A stretch of 64,000 nt of DNA from Frigoriglobus tundricola (lineage in GTDB: Bacteria; Planctomycetota; Planctomycetia; Gemmatales; Gemmataceae). Location of the stretch: assembly GCF_013128195.2 (NCBI RefSeq), contig NZ_CP053452.2, forward strand, positions 3,348,001-3,412,000, read 5' to 3'. The notes beneath the pieces were generated by a model, which saw only the letters and a program-made list of their open reading frames with translations, was not told the origin of the DNA and ran no database searches. A program made the translations under genes and the position numbers. Positions 47,414 to 63,666 of the stretch are shown piece after piece. The first letter of the stretch is position 1; each line of letters begins with the position of its first letter.

Positions 47414-47995
47414 ATGTCCCGCACGCGCACGTTTATCGGCATCGACATTGGCGACGGCGTTCGTGGGAACGCGGTGTCGCTCCAGGAGGCGCTCGCGAAG
47501 ACGGGCGCGGATGTGAAGTGGGTGACGCCGGAGAGCATGCACCTCACGCTGCTGTTTCTCGGCGAGGTGGACGACCGCGAGCTGCACCCGGTGTGCAAGG
47601 CGGTGCAAGCGGTGGCGGCGGGCGAACCTCCCTTCACCCTGCACGTGTCGGGTGTGGGGGCGTTCCCGACGCCGCGGCGTCCGAAGGTGCTGTGGGCCGG
47701 TGTGACGACGGGCGCGGACGCGCTCCAGCGTTTGAACGCCGCGCTCGAAGAGAAGATGCTGGACCTGGGTTGTTACCGGACGGAGGAGCGCGGGTACACG
47801 CCCCACCTGACGCTCGGCCGGGTGAAGGGCGAGGCGGACGGCCTGACGGTGGCGCCCGAATTGCAAAAGCGGCTGACGTGGAACGGGGGCCGCGTTCCGG
47901 TCGGCGAGATACTGGTATACAGTAGCAGTATGGAACGTGACGGACCGGTGTACACGGTCATCGGTCGCGCGCCGCTGACCGGTTCGCCGACCTGA
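47414..47995 (+). CDS. thpR: RNA 2',3'-cyclic phosphodiesterase (2H family)
   Basis: Opens 2',3'-cyclic phosphates on RNA ends. A 193-residue protein with two HxTx motifs: H43-L-T45 in SMHLTLLFLG and H131-L-T133 in PHLTLGRVKG. IGIDIGDGVRGNAVSLQEAL and VGEILVYSSSMERDGPVYTVIG are the family ends. ATG at 47414 gives the standard opening TFIGIDI. It lies 39 bases upstream of a broken tRNA-Arg gene, which marks the left edge of the inserted region. Confidence 0.92.
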   Translation: MSRTRTFIGIDIGDGVRGNAVSLQEALAKTGADVKWVTPESMHLTLLFLGEVDDRELHPVCKAVQAVAAGEPPFTLHVSGVGAFPTPRRPKVLWAGVTTGADALQRLNAALEEKMLDLGCYRTEERGYTPHLTLGRVKGEADGLTVAPELQKRLTWNGGRVPVGEILVYSSSMERDGPVYTVIGRAPLTGSPT

Positions 47996-48033: not shown

Positions 48034-48073
48034 GCGCCCGTAGCTCAACTGGATAGAGTACCCGTCTTCTAAG
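48034..48073 (+). pseudogene. 5' half of a tRNA-Arg(UCU) gene
   Basis: gcgcccgtagctcaactgga gives the acceptor strand (GCGCCCG, 48034-48040), D-stem GCTC/GAGT, A60, the anticodon-stem strand CCCGT and loop CTTCTAA with anticodon TCT, then G73. The expected complementary anticodon stem does not follow; the next bases (atgcaatacg) are unrelated. The missing 3' half is at 57311-57357 and pairs with it. The cut is exactly at the anticodon loop. Confidence 0.88.
48061..48073. other. Left attachment-site core
   Basis: CCCGTCTTCTAAG matches CCCGCCTTCTAAG at 57311-57323 at 12 of 13 positions, in direct orientation 9250 bp apart, inside the tRNA anticodon arm. This is the typical crossover position of tyrosine integrases using tRNA genes. 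Confidence 0.7.
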
Positions 48074-48367
48074 ATGCAATACGCTACTGCTCTCTTGCCA
48101 TTAAGCTTTTCCCTCGTCACGCTTTGCGGATACGAGCCGAGTCGCACTCAACTCTGACACGTCAGAATTCGGAGAGATCAACCCGCCGGCGTGAGTCTAG
48201 CGAAATCTGCTGAATTGCGGGCTCACAAATTACGGCAATTGAGCGATCTGCAGCGCACACGCCCGGCGGCTCACGTGATTGACGGTGTGATTTATCTTGG
48301 GTGGTATCCGTCCCTTTTCTCGGCGGAGGCCATGTGCCGCGTCGGGGGACGGTCACCCCGCCTCATG

Positions 48368-48441
48368 TCACGTTATCAAAAAGATGCCGAACACGTCGTC
48401 AGCGGCGGTGCCGGCGAGGTTCCCGACGATCCGGGTGTGGG
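48368..48441 (-). pseudogene. Severed 3' end of the beta-helix gene
   Basis: Read from the target site onwards it continues the frame of the gene at 50779-53013: THTRIVGNLAGTAADDVF followed by GIFLIT and a stop at 48368. The DDVFGIF ending is typical for these planctomycete surface proteins. It was separated by insertion of the IS66 element. The 294 bases to the left (48074-48367) show no gene. Confidence 0.85.
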
Positions 48442-48517
48442 GTACACGACCGGCGAACGGCGTCATTGACAGGTAAGGTAAGTTCGATGGCATCCGTTTT
48501 CCCTGGAGGATGCCGCT

Positions 48518-48865
48518 GTGCCTGCTGTCCCTGCTGCCTCTCGCCGTGACCCGGCCGCCACCCGTCGCCGGTGGGCCGAACGACTCGAACGGTTCCGCCG
48601 GTCGGGGCAGACGATCGCTCAGTTCTGTGCCGCCGAGGGCGTCTCACCGCCGTCCTTTTATGTGTGGCGGCGAACCCTCGCGGACCACGCCCCATCACCC
48701 GTACCGGTCACTCCGACGCTCGTCCCCATCCGCCTGACCCCGTCGCCCGCCGGACCGCCGATCGAGGTGGTGTTCCCGTCGGGAACCGTCCTGCGGTTCC
48801 CGGTCGATGCCCGACCGGAGGTCATCGCCGCCCTCGTGCATGCGGTGGAGGGGCGCCCGTGCTGA
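48518..48865 (+). CDS. tnpA: IS66 TnpA
   Basis: A 115-residue accessory transposition protein. RRWAERLERFRRSGQTIAQFCAAEGVSPPSFYVWRRTL is the helix-turn-helix part (ERFRRSGQTIAQFCAAEGVS), the IS66 TnpA hallmark. GTG start at 48518 with ctggagg upstream. Its stop codon overlaps the start of tnpB (GTGCTGA), indicating coupled translation. Confidence 0.88.
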   Translation: MPAVPAASRRDPAATRRRWAERLERFRRSGQTIAQFCAAEGVSPPSFYVWRRTLADHAPSPVPVTPTLVPIRLTPSPAGPPIEVVFPSGTVLRFPVDARPEVIAALVHAVEGRPC

Positions 48866-49236
48866 GCATTCCACCCACCACCCAGCTCTGGTACGGCGGG
48901 GCCGTCGATCTGCGCCTCGGGTTCGACGGCCTGTACCGCCACGTCCAATCCACGCTTCAGGCCGATCCCTTGAGCGGGCATCTGTTCATTTTCACCAATC
49001 GCTCGGCCAACCGGCTCAAGGCCCTGTACTGGACCCGCCACGGGCTCTGCTTGTGGTGCCAGCGACTCGAGCGCGGGCGGTACCACTTCCCCACCCCGAC
49101 CGACCGCAAACTCGAACTCACCGCCACCGAGTTCGCCATGATCCTCGACGGCATCGACTACTCGTCGGCCAAACGTTTCACCCGTTATTGTCGCCCGAAA
49201 GCGTCCGAATCCGACTTGCGCACCCGCACGTCCTGA
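48859..49236 (+). CDS. tnpB: IS66 TnpB
   Basis: A 125-residue protein of the IS66 Orf2 family: TQLWYGGAVDLRLGFDGLYRHVQ, FIFTNRSANRLKALYWTRHGLCLWCQRLERG and FPTPTDRKLELTATEF are the conserved blocks. It is required for IS66 transposition by an unclear mechanism. GTG at 48859 overlaps the tnpA stop by seven bases. The frame continues upstream in tnpA DNA without family-like sequence. Confidence 0.92.
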   Translation: MLSIPPTTQLWYGGAVDLRLGFDGLYRHVQSTLQADPLSGHLFIFTNRSANRLKALYWTRHGLCLWCQRLERGRYHFPTPTDRKLELTATEFAMILDGIDYSSAKRFTRYCRPKASESDLRTRTS

Positions 49237-49249
49237 CCCATCTTTCGGC

Positions 49250-50806
49250 ATGGACTCCGACGCCCCGCTGCCGACCGACGTGCTGACCCTCCAAGGGATG
49301 GTGCGTGCCCTCCAGGCCGAAAACGCCGACCTCCGCACGCAGCTCCAACGCCAGGCCGAGCAGTTCCAACGGACCATCGACGACCTGCGTGCCGAGGTCG
49401 CGGCCTTGAAGGCGAAGTTGGACCGGGCCACGACGCACCGGTTCGGCCGGCGGTCCGAACGCACACCGAAGCCACCGAAGGTCCCCGGCGACGGACCCGC
49501 GAAGCGGCGCCACGACCACGGCCGTTCGCCACTCCCGGCGCACCTCGAACGCCGCGACACGGTCCTCGATCTGACCCCCGACGAGCGCCGCTGCTCGGGC
49601 TGTGGTGGCGACCGCGTGTGCATCGGCCAGACCCAGACCGAGCAACTCGATTGCGACCCGACCCCGTACTTCGTGCGGCGCACGATCCGCAAGACGTACG
49701 CGTGCCAACAGTGCCCCCCGACGGTCCGGGCCGAGGACCGGATCCGGACCGCCACGCCGAGTACCGTCGGACCGATCGACAAGGGACTGTGTGGTCCGGG
49801 CTTGTTGGCCGAGGTTCTCGTCGGGAAGTTCCTCGACCACCTGCCGCTGCACCGCCAAGTCGCCCGGATCGGGCGCGCGGGGGTGACGGTGTCCGAGAGT
49901 ACCTTGGGCGATTGGGTGAAACAGTCCGCGGTGTTACTGACGTCGCTGTACCAGTTGATGCTCGAGCGGGTGCGCACGTGTCCGGTCCTCTGGTCCGATG
50001 ACACCCGCTCGCGGTTCGCCCAGCCCGGTGAGCGAACGATGCCGCACGGCCACTTCTGGGTGGGGATCGGAGATCCGACGGCCCCGTACACGGCGTTCCA
50101 CTTCACGACCGGTTACGACGCCGCGAGCGGACCGGACCAGTTCTTAGGCGGCTTCCGGGGCCACGTGCATGCCGATTGCCTCGCACAGTACAACGGCCTG
50201 TTCGCCGCCGGAGCCAAGCACGTCGCCTGTTGGTCCCACGCGCGCCGCAAGTTCCTCGGCGCCGGGGACCCCGGGGCCAAGGCGGTCGAACGCATCAACC
50301 GGTTGTACCACATCGAGCACACGCTTCCGGCGCCGGACTCACCGGAGCACATCGTCGCCCGTCGCGCGACGCGGCAAGCAAGGGCGCTCCCGATCCTGAA
50401 CGACCTGAAGGCGTGGCTCGACGCGGCACTCGGGACGGCGTTGCCCAAGTCGGCCCTGGGGGCCGCGATCCGGTACGTGGCGAATCACTGGGCCGCGTTC
50501 GTCCGGTACACCGAGGACGGGCGACTCTCGATCGATAATAACCTGAGCGAGCGAACGCTCCGGCTGATCGCCGTGGGTCGGAGCAATTGGAAGTTCGTGG
50601 GCAGTGCGAAGGCCGGTGCGCACGCCGCGGTTCACTTCTCGGTGGTGGGCACGTGTCGGCACTTGGGTCTCGATGCGACGGCATACCTGCGTGAGGTTCT
50701 TCCGGCCCTTCATGCGTTGGGCGAGAAGCCGACGGCGGACCAACTCGCACCTCTTCTGCCCGACGTGTGGGCGAAGCGTCAACAATCCCGACTCCTCGTC
50801 GCGTAA
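49250..50806 (+). CDS. tnpC: IS66 transposase TnpC
   Basis: A 518-residue DDE transposase. N-terminal coiled coil (LQGMVRALQAENADLRTQLQ), a zinc finger (CSGCGGDRVC; CQQC), then the catalytic core: LWSDDTRSRF (first Asp), FRGHVHADCLAQYNGLF (second Asp) and LSIDNNLSERTLRLIAVGRSNW with the Glu. CWSHARRKF is the IS66-specific insertion. It looks complete and without frameshift, so the element may be active. Confidence 0.93.
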   Translation: MDSDAPLPTDVLTLQGMVRALQAENADLRTQLQRQAEQFQRTIDDLRAEVAALKAKLDRATTHRFGRRSERTPKPPKVPGDGPAKRRHDHGRSPLPAHLERRDTVLDLTPDERRCSGCGGDRVCIGQTQTEQLDCDPTPYFVRRTIRKTYACQQCPPTVRAEDRIRTATPSTVGPIDKGLCGPGLLAEVLVGKFLDHLPLHRQVARIGRAGVTVSESTLGDWVKQSAVLLTSLYQLMLERVRTCPVLWSDDTRSRFAQPGERTMPHGHFWVGIGDPTAPYTAFHFTTGYDAASGPDQFLGGFRGHVHADCLAQYNGLFAAGAKHVACWSHARRKFLGAGDPGAKAVERINRLYHIEHTLPAPDSPEHIVARRATRQARALPILNDLKAWLDAALGTALPKSALGAAIRYVANHWAAFVRYTEDGRLSIDNNLSERTLRLIAVGRSNWKFVGSAKAGAHAAVHFSVVGTCRHLGLDATAYLREVLPALHALGEKPTADQLAPLLPDVWAKRQQSRLLVA

Positions 50807-53013
50807 GCCCATCCCACACCGAACCCCGCCGATCCCGGCTGTCGCTCACCGACCGTCTTTGGCCGGGTGTGTACGGTGTGGGTGCCCTTGGCCGTGGCGG
50901 CGGGATCGACGTAAATCCCCCCGCCGAAGCCCGGGCCGTTGGTCGCTCCGAACCCGCCCTCGGCGATGTTACCCGAAATCAGCGAGCGATTGACGGTCGC
51001 GGTCGCGCCGCCCGCGAGGTAAACTCCGCCGCCTTCCCCGGCGCCGCCGTTGCCCCCCGCGCCCCCTGCACCGCCGATAGCGAGGTTGCCGAGGATCGTA
51101 CTTCCGTTGATTATCAGCGTCGGCGCGCTCAGCGCATCGATGTTGCCGACCAGAACGCCACCGCCGTACCCGGTTCCGCCGTTTCCCCCGGCCCCGCCGG
51201 GACCCCCGATCGAGCCGTTACCCAGGATCGAGCAGTCGGTCAGCGTCAGGGAGGTGGCGTCCGACCCGAACGGCGGTCCGAACGGCTGGCCGACGGCCAC
51301 GGCACCGCCCGCGCCGCTCCCGCCCGCCGCTCCCGATCCGCCGGCGCCGCCGATGGCGGCGTTCGCGATGAGCGTGCAGTCGCTCAGTGTGCCGACGGAG
51401 TTGTTCTGGATCAGGACCGCGCCCCCGATGCCGGGGCCGCCGGCCGCACCGGGCGCGCCGGCCCCGCCGACAGATTGATTGCCGACGAACCCGCTGCCTG
51501 TGACGGCCATCGTCGATCCGGCGTCGCAATCGATCGCGCCGCCGTAGGCCGTCGCCCCGGGGCCGGCGGCGCTGGCCCCGCCGACTGCCTGGTTCCCTGT
51601 GAACTGGCTGCCGGTCACGGTCAGTGTCGAATTGGGGTAGTTGAAGATCGCGCCGCCGAACGCCGCCCCGATGAACGCGCTGTCGGCCGTCGGGGCGCCA
51701 CTGTTGTCGGCCGCGCTTCCGCCCCGGGCCACGTTGTCGGTGAGCGAGCAGTTGGTGAGCGCGAGTGACGAATTGTAGTTGTAGAGTGCCCCGCCGTTGG
51801 CCTCGCCGGAGGTGGTCACACCGTTCGCCCCGTTCCCGCCGATCGACTGGTTGTTGGTCAGGGAACAATGGGTCATTGTCGAGGTGGAGAACACGTAGGT
51901 GATCGCCCCGCCGCCGCTCGCCCCGCCCTGACCGGTTCCGATTGCGAGATTGGCGTCGAAACCGGTTTTCGTGACCGTGGCCGGGCCGAACTCGACGTCG
52001 ATTGCGCCGCTCTCCGCGAAGCCGGTACTGCCGACCTGATTGCCGCGGAACTGGGAGCCGGTCACACTCAGGGTCGCCTGGGAGGATTCGATCGCCCCGC
52101 CGGCCGCGAAGGCGTTCACGTCGGTCGGGTTGTCGGACGCGGCGGCCGAGTTGCCGACGAACGTCGAACCGGTCACGGTGAGCGCGCTTCCGACTTCGTT
52201 ATCGATCGCGCCACCCGCTGCGATGTCGTGGGCGCCCTGGTGTGCGGCGTTCCCGGTGAACGTGCTGGCGGAGACGGTGAGCGTGGCGTTGTTCTGGCTG
52301 GAGATCGCGCCGCCCAACCCCTGACCGGCCCCGGGGGCGCCGCCCCCGGTCGCGGTGTTGCCGACGAACGTGCATCGGGCGACGACGGCCGTCCCCTCGT
52401 TCATCAGGCCGCCGCCGTAACCCAACCCTGCACCGCCGATGACGGTATTGTTCGCGAACGTCGATTTCTCCGCGGTCAGCGACGCACCGGCCACGTTGAA
52501 GACCCCGCCGCCCAGGCCGGTGGTGGTCGAATCGCCGACCGCGACGTTTCCGGCGATCGTGACCGAGGCCAGCGACAGCGAGCCGGCGTTCCGAATGCCA
52601 CCCCCGGTGTCGGCCGCGCCGCCGGTCACGGTGAGTTCGGAGAGGGTGAGTGTGACGCCGCTCGCCACGTCGAAGACGCGACCCGTTCCGCCACCACTGA
52701 CCGCGAGTCGTTCCGCCCCGAGGCCGGTGATGGTCAGGCTCTTGGTGACCGCCAGTTCGCCCCCGGTCAGTACGATCGTGTCGCCGCCGAGGTGTGCGTC
52801 GAAGACGATCGTGTCGCCGCTGTTCGCGGAGGTGAGCGCGTCCCGGAGCGATCCCGGCCCGCTATCGGCGGCCGAACGGACCGTGACGACGCTCGGCACG
52901 GTCCGGCCGTCCAGCCGTTCGAGCCGGGGCGAAAAGCACTTTGGGCGCACGGCCCGAGGACGGGGCGAACCGATCCGGCCTCGTAGCGAGTTCAGCAGAT
53001 GAGTCAGTCGCAT
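50779..53013 (-). CDS. Secreted right-handed beta-helix (Pmp-like) protein with IS66-altered C-terminus
   Basis: A 744-residue protein as it stands. The N-terminus has the planctomycete surface-protein motif RPKCFSPRLERLDGRTVPS, then VTVRSAADSGPGSLRDALTSAN, the typical start of such beta-helix proteins. About twenty repeats of the type GGAIDNEVGSALTVTGSTFVGN follow (GG[A/G]I, N/S, F-x-G-N), giving a parallel beta helix. The native frame ends at 50883; the last 34 residues derive from IS66. The native C-terminal 21 residues are at 48368-48441. Probably exported and cell-surface located; adhesion is a guess. Confidence 0.87.
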   Translation of the reverse strand: MRLTHLLNSLRGRIGSPRPRAVRPKCFSPRLERLDGRTVPSVVTVRSAADSGPGSLRDALTSANSGDTIVFDAHLGGDTIVLTGGELAVTKSLTITGLGAERLAVSGGGTGRVFDVASGVTLTLSELTVTGGAADTGGGIRNAGSLSLASVTIAGNVAVGDSTTTGLGGGVFNVAGASLTAEKSTFANNTVIGGAGLGYGGGLMNEGTAVVARCTFVGNTATGGGAPGAGQGLGGAISSQNNATLTVSASTFTGNAAHQGAHDIAAGGAIDNEVGSALTVTGSTFVGNSAAASDNPTDVNAFAAGGAIESSQATLSVTGSQFRGNQVGSTGFAESGAIDVEFGPATVTKTGFDANLAIGTGQGGASGGGAITYVFSTSTMTHCSLTNNQSIGGNGANGVTTSGEANGGALYNYNSSLALTNCSLTDNVARGGSAADNSGAPTADSAFIGAAFGGAIFNYPNSTLTVTGSQFTGNQAVGGASAAGPGATAYGGAIDCDAGSTMAVTGSGFVGNQSVGGAGAPGAAGGPGIGGAVLIQNNSVGTLSDCTLIANAAIGGAGGSGAAGGSGAGGAVAVGQPFGPPFGSDATSLTLTDCSILGNGSIGGPGGAGGNGGTGYGGGVLVGNIDALSAPTLIINGSTILGNLAIGGAGGAGGNGGAGEGGGVYLAGGATATVNRSLISGNIAEGGFGATNGPGFGGGIYVDPAATAKGTHTVHTRPKTVGERQPGSAGFGVGWAYATRSRDC

Positions 53014-53191
53014 GACGGAACCTCGAATGGGTCAGGGGAACGAGAGTCACAATCCCACGTCGAACAGAGAACGGGGCGGTGCGCGGACCTTCGGCGGGCC
53101 GGTGACGAAAGTCGCCCCGGCACGGTCGTGACGCGTTCGGTTGTTGCGGGTGGTCGCCTGTTCGCAGAAAGGAACGAAGCCCGTCAGGGCT

Positions 53192-55327
53192 TCACCGGCC
53201 CGGAGGCTTGTGGTCCGCGGGTCGGCCGAGAAGCGATTCGGCCTCGGATCGGTACCGCGACAAATCAGCCGGTGGCGGCCCGTTCGCGTCCATCGCGCGA
53301 ACCGCTTTCTCGCACCACGCGGTGGCAGCGGCTCGATCCCCGAGCCGCCAGGAGGCCATCGCCAGGAAGAACCAGTCCCAGGCGGTTCCACCGGACCGGA
53401 GTTCCGCCGAACGCTCCAGTGCGGTGATGGCTTTCTGCCACTCGCCGGCCCGGTAGCGTGCCACGCCGAGTGTGTTCCAGATCCGCCCCTCCAGCGGCGC
53501 ACGATCGACCGCCCGCTGGGCGAGTTCGGCCGACTGCTCGGGGTTCCGGAGATCGGCGACGGGGCAATCCGCGAGGAGCCAGGCGTAAGCGTTTAGCGTT
53601 TCGGCTCCCGCGTCGAGAGGTAGCGCGAGGCGATACTGCTCGGCCGCGCGGGTGAAGGCGTCTCGCGCCTCTGCCGGGCGTTTCGTCGAAACGTGCATGG
53701 CGGCTTCCAGGGCATACGCGCCGGCCAGTCGCTTCCGGTACGCCGACTCCAAGGGGTGTTCTCCGGCAAGGCGGTCGAGGATCGCGGCTTCGTCGCGCAG
53801 GGCCGCCAGCGCCGGAGCCACCTGCTGATGGGCGCAGTACATCTCGGCGAGGTGGTGACACGCCCGTGCCGACTCGGACCGCACCACCGGGTCGGGGTCG
53901 TCCGGGTGGATGAACCGCACGAAGAATGAGGCGCCGCGGTCGATGAGTGCCTGTCGCAATTCGGCACCGGCGGCCGCGCCGGTCAGGCGCTCGTCTTCGA
54001 GCGGCATCAGGAGTTGCGTCGCCCCGCCGAGGGCCGCCTCCACGCTGGCTTCCGCCCGCCGGCGGTGCGTTTCGGACGTCTCGAGAGCCCGGTTTTTTTG
54101 CTCTTTCTCCTGCCAAACGAGGACCGTACTGGTGCCCAGCCCCACGACCGCGAAGATCAGGACGACGGCGGCGGCGATGGCCGCCGCCCGGTGCCGCCGG
54201 GTGAATTTCGACGCGCGCGTGACCAGTGACGGCCGTCGGGCCTTGACCGGCCGGTGTTCGAGGAAGCAGCGGAGGTCGTCCGCCAGATCTTCGGCCGAAG
54301 CGTACCGGTGGTGGGGCTCGCGCGCCAGCGCCTTGAGCACGATCGTCTCCAGGTCGCCGGGAACGGCCGGGTTGAGCCTTCGCGGCGGCCTCGGGTCCGT
54401 AGAGAGAATTTGGCGCAACAGTTCCGCCCGGTCCCGGCGGGAGTAGCACGGTTCGAGTGTGAGGAGTTCGTAGAGAGTCGCGCCGAGCGAATAGATGTCG
54501 CCGCGGGCGTCGGCCGGCGCGCCGCCCGAAACGTGTTCCGGGCTCATGTACCGCAACGTGCCTACTACGTCCCCGGTCCGGGTGATGCCGGGATCGCTGC
54601 CGCACCGTGCGAGGCCGAAGTCGGTCAGCCAGAGGTGACCGGTCGCGTCGAGCAGCAGGTTCCCCGGTTTCACGTCGCGGTGCACGACTCCGAGTCGGTG
54701 GGCGTAGGCGAGCGCCTCGGCCGCCTGGACGCCGAGCCGGGCCACCGACCGGGCGCGGTCCGGTTCGCTCGGCGCGAGCGCCGTGCGGTCGCCGGCACGT
54801 AGGCGGGTGATGACCGCGGAGAGCGGTTGGCCGTCGATGAACTGCATGGCGAAGTAGTGGACGCCCCGGTCGTTCCCCATCGCGTACACCGGGACGATGT
54901 GCGTGTGGTGGAGGCGGGCGGCGGTCTGGGCCTCGCTCTCGAACCGCTGCTGTTGGTAGGCGTCGAGGGTCGCGGCGAACGGCAGCACCTTCACCGCGAC
55001 GCGGCGGCCCAGGGGCCGCTGTTCCGCCTCGTACACGACGCCCATCCCGCCCCGGCCGACGACCCGCAACAACCGGTAATCGCCGAGCGTGCCCACCGCA
55101 TCCGGCAGGCCTTCGGTCGACTCCGCGCGTATCGGTCCGCGCAGGAGTTGCAGGGCCGGCAGCACTTCGCGGAGCAGGGCGGCGAGTTCCGGGTGCCGGC
55201 GGGCGTACTCTTCGACGTCCGGCCGGTCGCCGCGGTTGAGCCGTTCGGTGAACTCGTCGGCGACCCGCCCGACCACCGCTTCGGCCTCCGCGTCTCCGGA
55301 CGTTACCGGCGCATTCGTGTGGATCAC
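53192..55327 (-). CDS. Membrane Ser/Thr kinase with C-terminal TPRs
   Basis: A 711-residue protein. The N-terminal 75 residues (VADEFTERLNRGDRPDVEEYARRHPELAALL) are the usual planctomycete kinase leader. Kinase about 84-365: GRGGMG 91-96, K113, HRD 216-218, DFG 236-238, SPE near 262. A basic stretch and one membrane helix (AIAAAVVLIFAVVGLGTSTVLV, about 387-408) precede TPR-like repeats (AYALEAAMHVSTKRPAEARDAFTRAAEQY; NTLGVARYRAGEWQKAITALERSAEL). Unlike the kinases at 8587 and 31895 it has no zinc cluster. Start codon overlaps the sigma gene stop (ATGA). Confidence 0.9.
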   Translation of the reverse strand: MIHTNAPVTSGDAEAEAVVGRVADEFTERLNRGDRPDVEEYARRHPELAALLREVLPALQLLRGPIRAESTEGLPDAVGTLGDYRLLRVVGRGGMGVVYEAEQRPLGRRVAVKVLPFAATLDAYQQQRFESEAQTAARLHHTHIVPVYAMGNDRGVHYFAMQFIDGQPLSAVITRLRAGDRTALAPSEPDRARSVARLGVQAAEALAYAHRLGVVHRDVKPGNLLLDATGHLWLTDFGLARCGSDPGITRTGDVVGTLRYMSPEHVSGGAPADARGDIYSLGATLYELLTLEPCYSRRDRAELLRQILSTDPRPPRRLNPAVPGDLETIVLKALAREPHHRYASAEDLADDLRCFLEHRPVKARRPSLVTRASKFTRRHRAAAIAAAVVLIFAVVGLGTSTVLVWQEKEQKNRALETSETHRRRAEASVEAALGGATQLLMPLEDERLTGAAAGAELRQALIDRGASFFVRFIHPDDPDPVVRSESARACHHLAEMYCAHQQVAPALAALRDEAAILDRLAGEHPLESAYRKRLAGAYALEAAMHVSTKRPAEARDAFTRAAEQYRLALPLDAGAETLNAYAWLLADCPVADLRNPEQSAELAQRAVDRAPLEGRIWNTLGVARYRAGEWQKAITALERSAELRSGGTAWDWFFLAMASWRLGDRAAATAWCEKAVRAMDANGPPPADLSRYRSEAESLLGRPADHKPPGR

Positions 55328-55956
55328 GATCGGTCCTCCGGGCGGCCGGCACGGGTCAACTCTTCGCGGAGGCGGAGCAGGGCACGCCCGTACCGCCGAC
55401 TGGCGGTCGCCGGCTCGATCCCGAGCACGACCGCCACTTCCTGGTTCGACAGCTCTTCGAGGTTCCGCAGCGCAAGTATTTCGCGGTCCGCCGACGATAA
55501 TCGCGCGACGGCGTCGTGAACCTGCCGTGTCCGTTCCATGCTGTCGAGGCGATGTTCCGGGCTGTGGTCGCCGGCCAAGAGGTGTCGGACGAGGCAGCCG
55601 GACGAGCCGTCAAGCAGGGGAACTTCGCGGCGGACGGACCGGCGGGCGGCCCCGAGGTGGAAGCGCTCGGCCATGAGGAGGCGCTGGTGTGCCGTCTCCC
55701 GCAGCCACAGGCGGAACGCCATCGGCCGGCGGAGCAAATAGTCCGGAAGCCGGCGAACCGCTTCCAGCATCGACTCCTGCACGATGTCCGACGGATCGAC
55801 GCGAGACCGGAGCCGGCCGTCGATCCGGAGCGCGACGACCTGCCGGAGATAGGCGCGGTGCCGGTCGAACAGTTGGTCGAACGCCTCCGGTTCGCCCCGG
55901 CCGGCGCGGTTCAGGAGGCATTCGGTGTCTGCGGTGTTGGGGTCGACCTCGTCCAT
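55324..55956 (-). CDS. ECF-type RNA polymerase sigma factor
   Basis: A 210-residue sigma-70-family protein. Region 2: FDQLFDRHRAYLRQVVALRID then VDPSDIVQESMLEAVRRLPDYL; region 4: AVARLSSADREILALRNLEELSNQEVAVVLGIEPATASRRYGRALLRLREEL. ATG at 55956 has an excellent ribosome binding site (gaaggaggga). An open frame from 56223 would add 89 non-conserved residues. It is translationally coupled to the kinase through ATGA. Third sigma/kinase pair in the window. Confidence 0.9.
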   Translation of the reverse strand: MDEVDPNTADTECLLNRAGRGEPEAFDQLFDRHRAYLRQVVALRIDGRLRSRVDPSDIVQESMLEAVRRLPDYLLRRPMAFRLWLRETAHQRLLMAERFHLGAARRSVRREVPLLDGSSGCLVRHLLAGDHSPEHRLDSMERTRQVHDAVARLSSADREILALRNLEELSNQEVAVVLGIEPATASRRYGRALLRLREELTRAGRPEDRS

Positions 55957-56463
55957 TTCCACCCTCCCTCCTTCACTTACCTGCGAGAACGTCTCCTCGT
56001 GGACAGGTGCCAGGGGCGATTTTTCGGGGGCTCGGTCGCGAATGAACGGAATGCGGACAGCGAGCCCGCAGTGTGGGCTCAGTGGCGGCGTCGGATGTGT
56101 TTCGGATCGGGGCTCGCCTCGAGGCAGAGTTCGTGTGAGCGATGAGGCAGTCCACATGCACCACGGGTAGGGAACGGATTTCCGGGCGGCCCGTGCGAGC
56201 GGGGATAGTGTAGGCGGCGGCACCGGGGCGGCCGGGTCGCGCCGGGGCCGCCGCTCAGAGCGGTTCGCGGATTATGGTCCTCGACGACGCGGAGATGGTG
56301 CTCGCCGGGCGAACCGAACCCGATCATGCGGCACCTCTGCAACAGACGCGAAACTGTTTGGGCCGCGCTCAGAACCGCTACCGTCGTCCGCTCAGTAAGG
56401 TCCTGAAACAGCAACCGAACCCCGTGGAACGCTCCCGTGTCTTTCTGTAAGATCAAGAAATCG
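55957..56463. other. Gap between the sigma factor and tRNA-Arg
   Basis: A 507-bp stretch that must hold the promoter of the sigma/kinase pair. Frames on both strands read no recognisable protein. No repeats or RNA genes were seen apart from the tRNA at its right edge. Confidence 0.5.
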
Positions 56464-57120
56464 GCCCCCGTAGCTCAACTGGATAGAGCAACGCCCTTCT
56501 AAGGCGTAGGTTGTGCGTTCAAGTCGCACCGGGGGTACTCTGACAGGCTGGAACACCCGCCTCGCGAACTCTGACCCGTCAGTGAACGCTCCACCGCCTG
56601 GAGGCGGTGGCTTCGAGTAACGGACTGGAAGTCCTGTTCCGACCGGAGGTCGGCTGAAGACCTTCGGCCCGATGGCCGGCTGAAGCGACTCGGCGCCTTC
56701 CACGCCGAACTCCGTGTCGCCCCCACGGCCTTGATTCTCGATGTGCTCCTTCACCACCTCATCGGTCACCTGGCCGCTGCTCCGACAGAAGTACCCCCGG
56801 GCCCACAGGTGCCGGCCCCACAACGGCTTGCGCAGGTGGGCGAACTCGCCCAACAACTTGTACGCCGTCCTCCCCTTGGGGCGCGGCACCCACCGGCTGA
56901 CGGCGAGTTGCGGTGGTATCGACACGAGCAGATGTACATGGTCCGCAGCTACGTGCCCACGGATGATCAGTACGTCGTGTGTCCCGCAGATCTCCCGGAT
57001 CAGATCACGGACACGGCCCCCCACCGCCCCGGCCAGCGCCGACTTTCCATACTTCGTTATCCACACCCGGTGCAGGTGGATGAAGAAGACCGAATGCGGG
57101 CCGTGGCGGTGGGAGTCCAT
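56392..57120 (-). CDS. tnpA: IS200/IS605-type HUH transposase TnpA, probably inactive
   Basis: The first 135 residues match Y1-type transposases: HRHGPHSVFFIHLHRVWITKYGK, HDVLIIRGHVAADHVHLLVSIPP with the HUH motif (HVH), and LWARGYFCRSSGQVTDEVVKEHIENQ. The last block should read EYIENQ, where Tyr is the nucleophile; here the codon is CAC (His) instead of TAC. The frame then runs on for over 100 arginine- and proline-rich residues, antisense to the tRNA, showing that the native stop is lost too. The 3' boundary is therefore artificial. Confidence 0.75.
   Translation of the reverse strand: MDSHRHGPHSVFFIHLHRVWITKYGKSALAGAVGGRVRDLIREICGTHDVLIIRGHVAADHVHLLVSIPPQLAVSRWVPRPKGRTAYKLLGEFAHLRKPLWGRHLWARGYFCRSSGQVTDEVVKEHIENQGRGGDTEFGVEGAESLQPAIGPKVFSRPPVGTGLPVRYSKPPPPGGGAFTDGSEFARRVFQPVRVPPVRLERTTYALEGRCSIQLSYGGRFLDLTERHGSVPRGSVAVSGPY
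56464..56537 (+). tRNA. tRNA-Arg (anticodon TCT)
   Basis: A complete 74-nt cloverleaf: acceptor GCCCCCG / CGGGGGT (one G-U), D-stem GCTC/GAGC, anticodon stem ACGCC/GGCGT with loop CTTCTAA (anticodon TCT), T-arm GTGCG/CGCAC with TTCAAGT. CCA is not encoded. It has the same specificity as the split tRNA at 48034/57311 and may compensate for its loss. Sequence differs in acceptor and stems, so it is not a simple copy. Confidence 0.95.
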
Positions 57121-57180
57121 GACCACGGCTTAGACCTGCGAAAGCCGTCGCCTGGAAGGCGAGGGTTTCAACCCTCCCAG
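56584..57180. mobile_element. IS200/IS605-like element
   Basis: Around the tnpA are end hairpins as expected for this class: ccaccgcctggaggcggtgg (56591-56610) at one end and tcgcctggaaggcga plus gagggtttcaaccctc (57148-57176) at the other. No inverted terminal repeats or target duplication are expected for the class. Exact borders are not determined. No tnpB gene. Confidence 0.6.
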
Positions 57181-57310
57181 CAGAGGACAGTGAATCGGCA
57201 AGTGTCCATACAGAAACAGGGCAATTCGCACCAAACTGTGATAGCCAGCCCCAAACCACAATTTTGATACAAATCATTGGCGGAAAATGAATTTAAGATG
57301 TTCTCATTTG

Positions 57311-57357
57311 CCCGCCTTCTAAGCGGGTGGTTTCGGGTTCGAGTCCCGACGGGCGTA
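57311..57357 (+). pseudogene. 3' half of a tRNA-Arg(UCU) gene
   Basis: Anticodon stem CCCGC/GCGGG around loop CTTCTAA (TCT), T-arm TCGGG-TTCGAGT-CCCGA and acceptor strand CGGGCGT with A57357. There is no D-arm upstream; the preceding bases are ttctcatttg. CGGGCGT pairs with GCGCCCG at 48034-48040 in all seven positions (one G-U). With that half it rebuilds a 74-nt tRNA. The core 57311-57323 is the right att site. Confidence 0.88.
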
Positions 57358-57476: not shown

Positions 57477-58841
57477 GTGAGCAATCCGCGCAGAGTCACT
57501 CCGTCTTACCTGATCCACAAGCAATCCGGCCGTGCCCGTGCCGTCTGGACCGACCAGACCGGTACCCGACACCAACAGCTCCTCCCCGGCGCGTTCGAGA
57601 GCCCGGAGTCCCGCACCGCGTTCGCACGCCTCCAGCTCGAACTCGTCTCCGCGTCGCACCCGATCACCCAAGCCGCCCGGCGCGACGGTCTTACCGTGAA
57701 TGAAGTGCTGCTCGCGTTCATGAACTGGGCCGACACTCATTACCGCACCGCCGACGGCCATCCCACCACCGAGATCGGCGAACTCCAATGGTCGATCCGC
57801 GCCGTTCGCGAACTGTACGGCGACACACCCGCCGCCGAGTTCGGGCCGCGGGCACTCGCCGCCGTCCGCCAACACATGATCGGACGAAACTGGGCGCGGT
57901 CGCTCATCAACCACCGCATCGATCGCGTCAAGCGCGTCTTCAAATGGGCCACGTCCGAAGAACTGGTTCCGGTCACCGTATACCAAGCCCTCCGCACCCT
58001 GGCCGGGCTGCGGCGCGGTCGCACCGAGGCCCGCGAAGCGGAACCGGTGGGGCCGGTCGATCCCGCACACGTTGCCGCCACGCTGCCGCGCCTCACCGCG
58101 CACTTGCGGTGCATGGTCGAACTGCAACGGCTGACCGGGATGCGGCCCGGCGAAACGTGCAAGCTCCGGCTGTGCGAAATGGACCGCTCCGGCGAGGGAT
58201 GGGTGTACCGGCCGGCACAACACAAGACCGCCCACCACGGCAAGACACGAGCGATCCACTTCGGCCCGCGGGCACAGTCACTTGTTGTCGCGTTCCTGCG
58301 CGGGGAGAACCCGCCGCCCGAAGGGTTCGCCCACATCGATCCGAACTACCCCGACCAGAGCGCCGCGCGCCGTGTCATGGCCGACGCCTATGAGGAAGCC
58401 GGCCGCACGCGGGACGCCGAGTTGCTCCGCGACACGGCCCGTGTAGTCGCTCTGGTGGGCGGTTGCGTGGTCGATCCGGCCGCCACACTGTTCAGCCCGG
58501 CCCGCGCTCGTGAGGACCGGTTTCGCGCCGCCCGGCAGAAGCGCAAGAGCAAGGTGCAGCCCTCGCAGCTCAACCGCCAGAAGGCCCAGCCGAAGCGCCG
58601 GCCCGCGGCCTCGTACACGCCCCGCACCTACGCCCATGCTGTCCGGTTGGCAGCGAAGAAGGCACAGGTTCCACACTGGCACCCCAACCAGCTCCGGCAC
58701 CTGTTCGCGACCGAGGTGCGGAAGCAACACGGCCTGGAAGCCGCCCAGGTGCTTCTCGGCCACTCCCGCGCCGACGTGACCCAGGTCTACGCCGAACGCA
58801 ACGAGCAACTCGCCGCAACGGTCGCCGCCGAGATCGGCTAA
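57477..58841 (+). CDS. int: Tyrosine-type site-specific integrase
   Basis: A 454-residue phage-integrase-family recombinase. The SAM-like arm/core-binding region (VNEVLLAFMNWADTHY, DRVKRVFKWATSEELV) precedes the catalytic domain: R223 in LTGMRPGE, a Lys in HKTAHHGKTR, R407 in HWHPNQLRHLFATEVR, H429 in LLGHSRADVTQVY and Tyr438. The residue three before R407 is Asn404, where the family usually has His. It lies 119 bases after the tRNA 3' half, a classic position of an element integrating at that tRNA. Confidence 0.9.
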   Translation: MSNPRRVTPSYLIHKQSGRARAVWTDQTGTRHQQLLPGAFESPESRTAFARLQLELVSASHPITQAARRDGLTVNEVLLAFMNWADTHYRTADGHPTTEIGELQWSIRAVRELYGDTPAAEFGPRALAAVRQHMIGRNWARSLINHRIDRVKRVFKWATSEELVPVTVYQALRTLAGLRRGRTEAREAEPVGPVDPAHVAATLPRLTAHLRCMVELQRLTGMRPGETCKLRLCEMDRSGEGWVYRPAQHKTAHHGKTRAIHFGPRAQSLVVAFLRGENPPPEGFAHIDPNYPDQSAARRVMADAYEEAGRTRDAELLRDTARVVALVGGCVVDPAATLFSPARAREDRFRAARQKRKSKVQPSQLNRQKAQPKRRPAASYTPRTYAHAVRLAAKKAQVPHWHPNQLRHLFATEVRKQHGLEAAQVLLGHSRADVTQVYAERNEQLAATVAAEIG

Positions 58842-62201: not shown

Positions 62202-62777
62202 CGCAAGTTCTCCACTTTGCAGGGGGCTCCGCCCCCCGCACCCCCCGAAGACAAAAGCACTCCGTTGCATCGGCCTGACGAAGTGGCGTCTCAAAAGCGA
62301 GCCGGTGATCAGAGCGGAAAGTGCGGGGCGCCGGCAGTGATGGCCGGTGCCGAAAGGCACGGTGCGGCCGTTCGCTCCGCTTCGGCCCCAAAGTTCATTA
62401 TAGCTCGCATTCGCTCGCTGACATGAACTTTGGGGGCCTCCGCTGCGCTCACCACGTGGGGCCAAAACTCGACGCATCGCACGGCCTTGCGGCCGGCTCT
62501 TGGACGGGGTGGGGTTCGGGGTTGGCGAGAAGGGTGGTGTGGAGTTCTTCGCCGGCAGGAGGCCGGCGCGTGTTCGCGGCCGGATGCCGCGCCAGTCGCT
62601 AGGGAGACTGAGCTTTGTCTTGCAAAGCAAGCGGCACGAAAACGCTGGAAAAACAAGCATTTTCCGCTTGCGCGAGGCACCAAACCTGGTAAAATGTACA
62701 CCGGTGATGAAACGATGCCGCCGCAGTGCGCCAACACTGCGGCGGCGGCCAAACCCCTGATTGACGCAGGAGCAGGC

Positions 62778-63035
62778 ATGAACACTTTAACAGCAGGCGC
62801 CGCACGCGCCAAGACAGGCCGCGCACCGGGCCAAGCCCGGACCATTCAGCGGACCTACGAACAGCTCATTCGCGGAGCCCGGCCGCGCCGGGTGTTCTTC
62901 TTCAGCACGGAACTGAGCCGCTGCCTGCCGCTGCCGAAGAGGATGGCCCTTCGGCTGGTGCGGCAAGGACATCAGGGGCTGACGGTGCGGGCGGCCGAAC
63001 ACGGCTGCGTGTTCCTTTCCTTCCTGCCCGAGTAA
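62778..63035 (+). CDS. Small basic hypothetical protein
   Basis: An 85-residue ORF with a ribosome binding site (aggagc eight bases upstream). MNTLTAGAARAKTGRAPGQA is basic; RVFFFSTELSRCLPLPKRMALRLVRQGHQGLTVRAAEHGCVFLSFLPE follows and looks like a small folded unit. No family is recognised. It is framed by inverted repeats, so it may be a passenger or part of the repeat element. Confidence 0.55.
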   Translation: MNTLTAGAARAKTGRAPGQARTIQRTYEQLIRGARPRRVFFFSTELSRCLPLPKRMALRLVRQGHQGLTVRAAEHGCVFLSFLPE

Positions 63036-63340
63036 CCACACCAGAACCAGCACAGCGGCTCGGCCGGCAGGACGCCGGCCCTGCTGCCGGCACGACGACA
63101 GCCCGGAGCGAGGGGACACGGCTTGCCGGACCCCCGCAGCGGCCTGGGACGCCAAGGCCGCGGCATCCGGCCGCGAAGACACGCCGGCCTCCTGCCGGCG
63201 GACCCGCAACCGGTACCGCGCCAGAGCCCACAGCACCCCCACCGCCTTTCTCTTCTCTTCCCACACCCCTCTCAACACTGAGCGAGCGCAGCGCAGGCCC
63301 CCCGAAGGCGAACAAACCGGCTGTCAAGGGCCGGGCCGGC

Positions 63341-63380
63341 TTTGCGGCCCGGAGCGAGGCTTTGCGGCCCGGAGCGAGGC
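63341..63380. repeat. Tandem duplication of a 20-bp unit within a hairpin
   Basis: tttgcggcccggagcgaggc occurs twice in succession, with a third partial copy (tttgcgagcgg) after it. The flanking ggctgtcaaggg (about 63319-63330) and cccttgacagcc (63392-63403) are complementary, so the tandem units lie in a hairpin loop. Confidence 0.6.
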
Positions 63381-63666
63381 TTTGCGAGCGGTCCCTTGAC
63401 AGCCGAGTTAGTTTGGAGCCGAGGGGGCCGAAGCGGAGCGAGCCACCGCAACGTGACCGGAGAGCGTATGCGCCCGGATCAGCGACGGAGACGGCACTTC
63501 GTCAGGCCGATGCAAGTGAAATGCCTTCTGTCTTCGGGGGTGCGGGGGGCGGAGCCCCATGCAGAGCGAATGCAACACTGCGAGCCTTGCCGCGACGAAA
63601 CGACCACTGTAGAAGTGGGACGATAGTGACGACTCAGGGCGTAAGATTCCTTACTGGGAGGCACCG

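What the first reader, a model, noticed from the sequence alone, without database searches (positions are those of the whole stretch)
48034..57357. tRNA-Arg(UCU) split at its anticodon loop by a 9.2-kb insertion that carries a replacement tRNA
5' and 3' halves lie 9250 bp apart with a common 13-nt core. Their acceptor strands pair at all seven positions and the combined length is 74 nt, the same as the intact tRNA-Arg(UCU) within the insert (56464-56537). The insert thus appears to have destroyed the resident gene and may supply the only decoder of AGA/AGG via UCU. That would make the element hard to lose. Normally tRNA-targeting elements restore the tRNA; this one did not.
Basis: partly seen in the sequence, partly recalled or inferred. 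Interest (0 to 1): 0.75.

Follow-up and report, generated by a model that had tools for sequence, protein, structure and literature searches.

The report
Island broke, then replaced, a tRNA
A piece of mobile DNA inserted itself into the middle of a bacterium's tRNA gene for the codon AGA and carries its own working-looking copy of that tRNA, so the host now appears to depend on the invader for this step of protein synthesis; a second genus shows the same arrangement.

Summary
In this Gemmataceae-type genome the tRNA-Arg(UCU) gene downstream of a LigT-like gene is cut in its anticodon loop. Its halves (48034-48073 and 57316-57357) are 9.25 kb apart and rejoin in silico into a tRNA that matches two relatives at 70 of 74 positions. 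The only other UCU tRNA that my searches found in the genome lies inside the insert (56464-56537) and is of a different lineage.

The insert is the relic of an integrative island. A 13-bp palindrome marks both its ends, with 2 copies in the window against 0.005 expected. Limnoglobus roseus, from another genus, has the same architecture: a 5' half next to a tyrosine recombinase truncated by a repeat, and a 68/74-identical replacement tRNA about 0.2 kb from the 3' half. Most relatives of that recombinase sit beside an intact tRNA, as canonical islands do. These two islands lack the tRNA-restoring sequence and carry a whole tRNA instead.

This matches "tRNA-dependent lysogeny", described in 2024 for actinobacteriophages. 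New are the host phylum, the lack of recognised phage structural genes, and immobilised copies that leave a foreign sole AGA-decoding tRNA. The integrase at 57477 belongs to a second, canonical island. Nothing was tested experimentally.

The parts
47414..47995 (+). LigT-like 2'-5' RNA ligase/phosphoesterase gene, ancestral left neighbour of tRNA-Arg(UCU)
   Evidence: Pfam LigT_PEase; tRNA-Arg(UCU) lies beside it in 9 of 29 fetched relative loci
48034..48073 (+). 5' half of the resident tRNA-Arg(UCU), ending in the anticodon loop (CTTCTAAG)
48061..48073 (+). left copy of the attachment core, CCCGTCTTCTAAG
   Evidence: 12 of 13 identical to the right copy
48153..48165 (.). palindrome TCTGACACGTCAG near the left end of island 1 (putative recombinase arm site)
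   Evidence: one of 2 in the window, 0.005 expected; counterpart at the same end in G081
48518..50806 (+). IS66-type insertion sequence genes, lying where the integrase gene lies in the Limnoglobus copy
   Evidence: Pfam TnpB_IS66 and DDE_Tnp_IS66; no integrase remnant found in the insert
50779..53013 (-). cargo: right-handed beta-helix protein, its 3' end apparently replaced by IS66 sequence
   Evidence: Pfam Beta_helix; overlap with the IS66 ORF
53192..55327 (-). cargo: Ser/Thr protein kinase with TPR repeats
55324..56223 (-). cargo: ECF-type sigma factor
56464..56537 (+). replacement tRNA-Arg(UCU) carried by island 1; the only UCU tRNA found in the genome
   Evidence: 68/74 identical to the Limnoglobus replacement tRNA, 56/74 to the resident
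56570..56582 (.). palindrome TCTGACCCGTCAG near the right end of island 1
56392..57126 (-). ORF with an IS200-type Y1 transposase domain (its first ~130 codons) between the replacement tRNA and the right junction
   Evidence: Pfam Y1_Tnp, residues 13-132
57311..57323 (+). right copy of the attachment core, CCCGCCTTCTAAG
57316..57357 (+). 3' half of the resident tRNA-Arg(UCU) with the core; also the left repeat of island 2
57477..58841 (+). tyrosine recombinase of island 2, a separate canonical island (57316 to about 69756, right repeat outside the window)
   Evidence: Pfam Phage_integrase; homologues follow intact tRNA-Arg(UCU) in relatives; second 3' half

Best explanation
Island 1 (48074-57323) is the remnant of an integrative element whose tyrosine recombinase crossed over in the anticodon loop of the single tRNA-Arg(UCU) gene. 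Its attachment site shares only about 13 bp (5' anticodon stem plus loop) with the tRNA gene, so neither junction rebuilds a tRNA. The element carries a complete tRNA-Arg(UCU) of another lineage near its right end, which replaces the lost one. Its recombinase was later lost, so the host is left with the element's tRNA as its only AGA decoder. Shown by sequence: the split, the ancestral intact state, the uniqueness of the replacement within my searches, and the shared architecture in a second genus. Inferred: that the lost recombinase was of the Limnoglobus type, that the replacement tRNA is expressed and functional, and that loss of the island would be lethal.
For: Joined halves give a tRNA in G000 and in Limnoglobus (G081), 70/74 identical to a relative's intact gene. 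Ancestral synteny of LigT and tRNA-Arg(UCU) in 9 of 29 fetched relative loci. No other UCU tRNA found. Palindrome TCTGACNNGTCAG only at the two ends of island 1, 2 seen against 0.005 expected, with counterparts at both ends in G081. G081: 5' half followed about 100 nt on by a tyrosine recombinase gene, replacement tRNA about 0.2 kb before the 3' half. Replacements 68/74 alike while each differs from its own resident (56/74, 58/74). Relatives of the G081 recombinase have an intact tRNA directly upstream in 22 of 30 loci, so the family normally restores the tRNA. Published precedent: PMC10865867.
Against: No recombinase is left in island 1, so its assignment to the Limnoglobus-type family rests on end motifs and architecture. 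The cargo (kinase, sigma factor, beta-helix) is not diagnostic of a mobile element. In G081 the two halves are about 305 kb apart and in opposite orientation, which needs an inversion (inferred from repeat copies at both sites). 23 of 173 tRNA candidates were not scored. No expression or essentiality data.
Confidence: 0.85

Rival explanations
1. Island 1 originally restored the tRNA in the usual way (its attachment site held a 3' half), and the restored 3' half at the left junction was deleted later because a spare tRNA on the island made it dispensable.
For: The recombinase relatives are mostly of the restoring type; the core is followed by unrelated sequence in both genomes.
Against: The same lack of a 3' half occurs at the same nucleotide in two genera, with the left-end palindrome about 70-80 nt from the core in both; two identical secondary deletions are less likely.
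Confidence: 0.1
2. Islands 1 and 2 are one composite element of about 21.7 kb (48074-69756) mobilised by the 57477 recombinase; the inner 3' half is a leftover.
For: The 3' half occurs twice, at 57316 and at window-coordinate 69756.
Against: Homologues of the 57477 recombinase stand alone behind intact tRNA-Arg(UCU) in several relatives. In G081 the island to the right of the 3' half has a recombinase not matched by the 57477 protein, while the left island keeps its ends and tRNA.
Confidence: 0.07
3. The split is an assembly error or a non-site-specific rearrangement (for example IS-driven).
For: IS66 and IS200 genes lie inside the insert.
Against: The breakpoint is exactly at the anticodon loop with a shared core, and an independent complete genome shows the same arrangement.
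Confidence: 0.02

Closest known systems
tRNA-dependent lysogeny of actinobacteriophages (Fionnbharth, LeBron, Gaia and others; PMC10865867, abstract and passages read)
   Same: Tyrosine recombinase, attB in a tRNA gene, short common core (about 8-17 bp there, 13 bp with one mismatch here), tRNA not rebuilt, element carries a complete tRNA of the same anticodon.
   Different: There: active temperate phages, tRNA-Lys, Ile2 or Leu, experimentally tested. Here: a planctomycete island with no recognised phage structural gene, tRNA-Arg(UCU), recombinase lost, no experiment.
Rhizobium vTRX32-1-like phages (PMC8631192, passages read)
   Same: 12-bp motif in tRNA-Leu, a complete phage tRNA-Leu that lacks the motif; here too the replacement tRNA differs from the core in the anticodon stem.
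   Different: Phages of Alphaproteobacteria; the integration was described from genome comparison of phages and prophages.
Canonical tRNA-targeting genomic islands (Islander, PMC4383910, abstract and passages read)
   Same: Site, recombinase class, crossover in the anticodon loop; island 2 in this window is of this kind.
   Different: Canonical islands restore the tRNA from an att fragment; island 1 does not.
5'-restoring islands in relatives (G013, G021, G075, G089)
   Same: Also leave a 5' half cut at TTCTAA.
   Different: They duplicate the 5' half, so an intact gene with the same 5' half exists; no foreign tRNA.

Membership tests
tRNA-dependent lysogeny / integration | attB overlaps a host tRNA gene and only a short core is shared | tested here: met
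   Core CCCG[T/C]CTTCTAAG, 12 of 13 identical
tRNA-dependent lysogeny / integration | No functional tRNA is rebuilt at either junction | tested here: met
   ARAGORN finds none at either junction
[quoted passage not shown]
   tRNA-Arg(tct) at 56464 inside the insert; no other found in the genome
tRNA-dependent lysogeny / integration | Element-encoded tyrosine integrase mediates the reaction | tested here: inconclusive
   No integrase left in island 1; a truncated one in the G081 counterpart
tRNA-dependent lysogeny / integration | Element is a temperate phage | tested here: inconclusive
   No structural phage family matched by the proteins of island 1 that were scanned (3 against PHROGs; Pfam); the relic may have lost them
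tRNA-dependent lysogeny / integration | Element tRNA is required for survival of the lysogen | not testable with these tools
   Needs a deletion experiment
Canonical tRNA genomic island | Target tRNA restored, displaced fragment at the far end | tested here: not met
   Island 1: not restored. Island 2 does show the displaced 3' fragment

The most novel reading that the evidence does not exclude
Gemmataceae harbour a lineage of non-phage islands that persist by taking over an essential single-copy tRNA: they break tRNA-Arg(UCU), supply a version whose anticodon stem no longer matches their own target core (10 of 13), and once the recombinase decays they become permanent, so the host's AGA decoder is swapped for a foreign one.
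Probability: 0.35. Interest if true: 0.65.

Novelty: new variant of a known kind. Interest (0 to 1): 0.5.

Why it matters
It extends tRNA-dependent integration from phages of Actinobacteria and a few other groups to islands of Planctomycetota, and shows its long-term outcome: the mobile element decays but the host keeps the foreign tRNA as its only decoder of AGA. It gives a route by which essential tRNA genes are replaced horizontally, and a search rule (split tRNA plus an unlike tRNA of the same anticodon on the insert) for cases that island finders built on a restored tRNA would miss.

Tried and rejected
Integrase 57477 as the recombinase of the 9.2-kb insert: rejected, it belongs to island 2. 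Integrase remnant inside the insert: none; a first tblastn without composition correction gave spurious hits, the corrected run only matches with E 0.14 or worse. All split cases in the family being replacements: rejected. Of 7 genomes with a 5' half cut at TTCTAA (58 of 95 genomes matched), 4 (G013, G021, G075, G089) have an intact gene with the same 5' half, G091 is unresolved (contig end), and only G000 and G081 are replacements. Trans-spliced split tRNA as in archaea: considered, not tested, unlikely in bacteria (recalled). Among planctomycetes 20 of 392 genomes matched a 22-nt arm with up to one mismatch; the exact arm was in 2 of the 392 (G000 and G594) and the others read TTTTAA. A genome-contig scan with the Limnoglobus recombinase found only that genome itself; a viral scan found 5 loci, 2 with a tRNA-Phe, none with tRNA-Arg. 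Literature on planctomycete islands: nothing relevant among 10 listed papers; the tycheposon search was not useful.

Full report
WHAT IS THERE. The window lies in a 9.86-Mb genome in 2 contigs; the relatives used below include Limnoglobus roseus, a Gemmataceae member (family recalled). At 48034-48073, 38 nt behind a LigT-like gene (47414-47995), stands a 40-nt 5' half of a tRNA ending in CTTCTAAG. At 57316-57357 stands the matching 3' half. ARAGORN calls neither, but calls tRNA-Arg(tct) when they are joined. The joined gene matches relative G005 at 70 of 74 positions, and G009 carries the same sequence as G005. The shared core is CCCG[T/C]CTTCTAAG, 12 of 13, with an uninterrupted identity of 8.

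ANCESTRAL STATE. Among 59 genomes searched (own included), 51 have a LigT match. Of the 30 loci fetched, 29 from relatives, 9 have an intact tRNA-Arg(UCU) in the fetched stretch beside the LigT-like gene. Elsewhere the two are further apart or separated. In Limnoglobus (G081) the same neighbours (glutamyl-tRNA synthetase-like, kinase-like, LigT-like ORFs, named by resemblance of their translations to the window's) precede the 5' half.

UNIQUENESS. The Rfam tRNA model gives 85 matches in the genome; 150 of 173 candidates were scored. ARAGORN on the fetched stretches finds one UCU gene, the one at 56464. Two patterns, on the 5' side and the 3' side, find only this gene and the fragments. A CCU tRNA exists and should read AGG but not AGA (decoding rule recalled). 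AGA makes up 31 of 14,999 codons in the 27 ORFs of 300 aa or more in the window, and 14 of the 27 use it.

TWO ISLANDS. The 3' half recurs at window-coordinate 69756, and the repeats share about 47 bp. The tyrosine recombinase at 57477 follows the first copy. Its homologues follow tRNA-Arg(UCU) in several relatives (G001, G003, G004, G009, G010, G011, G031 by tblastn). So 57316-69756 is a canonical island (island 2), and island 1 (48074-57323) is separate. Which came first cannot be told.

ISLAND 1. It holds an IS66-type element, a beta-helix gene cut by it, a Ser/Thr kinase, an ECF sigma factor, the tRNA-Arg(UCU) and an IS200-type transposase. No recombinase remnant was found. The palindrome TCTGACNNGTCAG occurs at 48153 and 56570 only; 0.005 are expected per 64 kb from 200 first-order Markov simulations.

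THE SECOND CASE. A family search (95 genomes, 58 with a match) shows 7 genomes with a 5' half cut at TTCTAA. In G081 the 5' half is followed by a tyrosine recombinase ORF (Pfam Phage_integrase). The ORF runs into a 0.9-kb repeat and lacks the C-terminal part that its relatives have; the repeat is 99.6% identical to a copy at the other site. About 305 kb away on the other strand a complete tRNA-Arg(UCU) is followed about 0.2 kb on by the 3' half of the resident. The two joined halves again give a tRNA. The repeat copies at both sites suggest an inversion by recombination. Palindromes of the same type lie at both ends. The replacement tRNAs of G000 and G081 agree at 68 of 74 positions, but each agrees with its own resident at only 56 and 58. 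Other members of both genera have intact residents, so two insertions are more likely than one old one. Here too a second 3' half lies 27 kb on; the recombinase beside the first one is not matched by the 57477 protein.

THE RECOMBINASE FAMILY. A search of 397 genomes of the class found relatives in 122 (E 1e-25). Of 30 loci fetched, 22 have an intact tRNA within 450 nt upstream on the same strand. One more has an intact tRNA overlapping the predicted start by 9 nt. One is G081 itself; the other 6 have 3' fragments, an opposite-strand tRNA or nothing recognised (one search printed the upstream sequence of 24 of the 30). The tRNAs are Phe, Arg, Lys, Asp, Met and Ile. The family thus normally restores the tRNA, and G081 and, by inference, G000 depart from it.

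MECHANISM. Shown: split, ancestry, foreign replacement, recurrence. Inferred: crossover in the anticodon loop by a recombinase of the G081 type; survival of the host through the carried tRNA; later decay of the recombinase, which fixed the swap. The replacement tRNA matches the target core at only 10 of 13 positions (counted by eye from the sequences), which would keep it from serving as a target; this is not tested.

KNOWN KIND. Guerrero-Bustamante and Hatfull (PMC10865867; abstract and passages read) describe tRNA-dependent lysogeny with the same logic and tested it. Similar arrangements are reported for Rhizobium phages (PMC8631192, passages read) and discussed for Sinorhizobium prophages (PMC11476347, PMC12429752, passages read). 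A search for the phrase listed 15 of 18 papers; none of the listed titles concerns Planctomycetota, and a search on planctomycete islands listed nothing relevant. I therefore class it as a new variant of a known kind.

Noticed in passing
62215-63566: Four nested inverted-repeat pairs (28-42 nt, 88-96% complementary) form a 1.35-kb imperfect palindrome inside island 2. Purpose unknown.
   Followed up: no
G000:C1:2860000-2863300 (L038) and 3075500-3079500 (L057): Two dense tRNA clusters, 20 and 12 genes by ARAGORN, many with weak model scores, resembling tRNA arrays of mobile elements (resemblance recalled).
   Followed up: no
G000:C1:3142599 (L001) and 3188531 (L056): Intact tRNA-Arg(CCG) with a 3' fragment of the same gene 46 kb away: the signature of a canonical island in the same genome.
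   Followed up: partly
L123, G013:C1:6237581 and 6253083: 5'-restoring island: 5' half and upstream region of tRNA-Arg(UCU) duplicated 15.5 kb apart, with a tyrosine recombinase next to the intact copy.
   Followed up: partly
L159, G091:C12:74372: A further tRNA-Arg(UCU) 5' half cut at TTCTAA with no intact copy found in that genome; near a contig end, unresolved.
   Followed up: no
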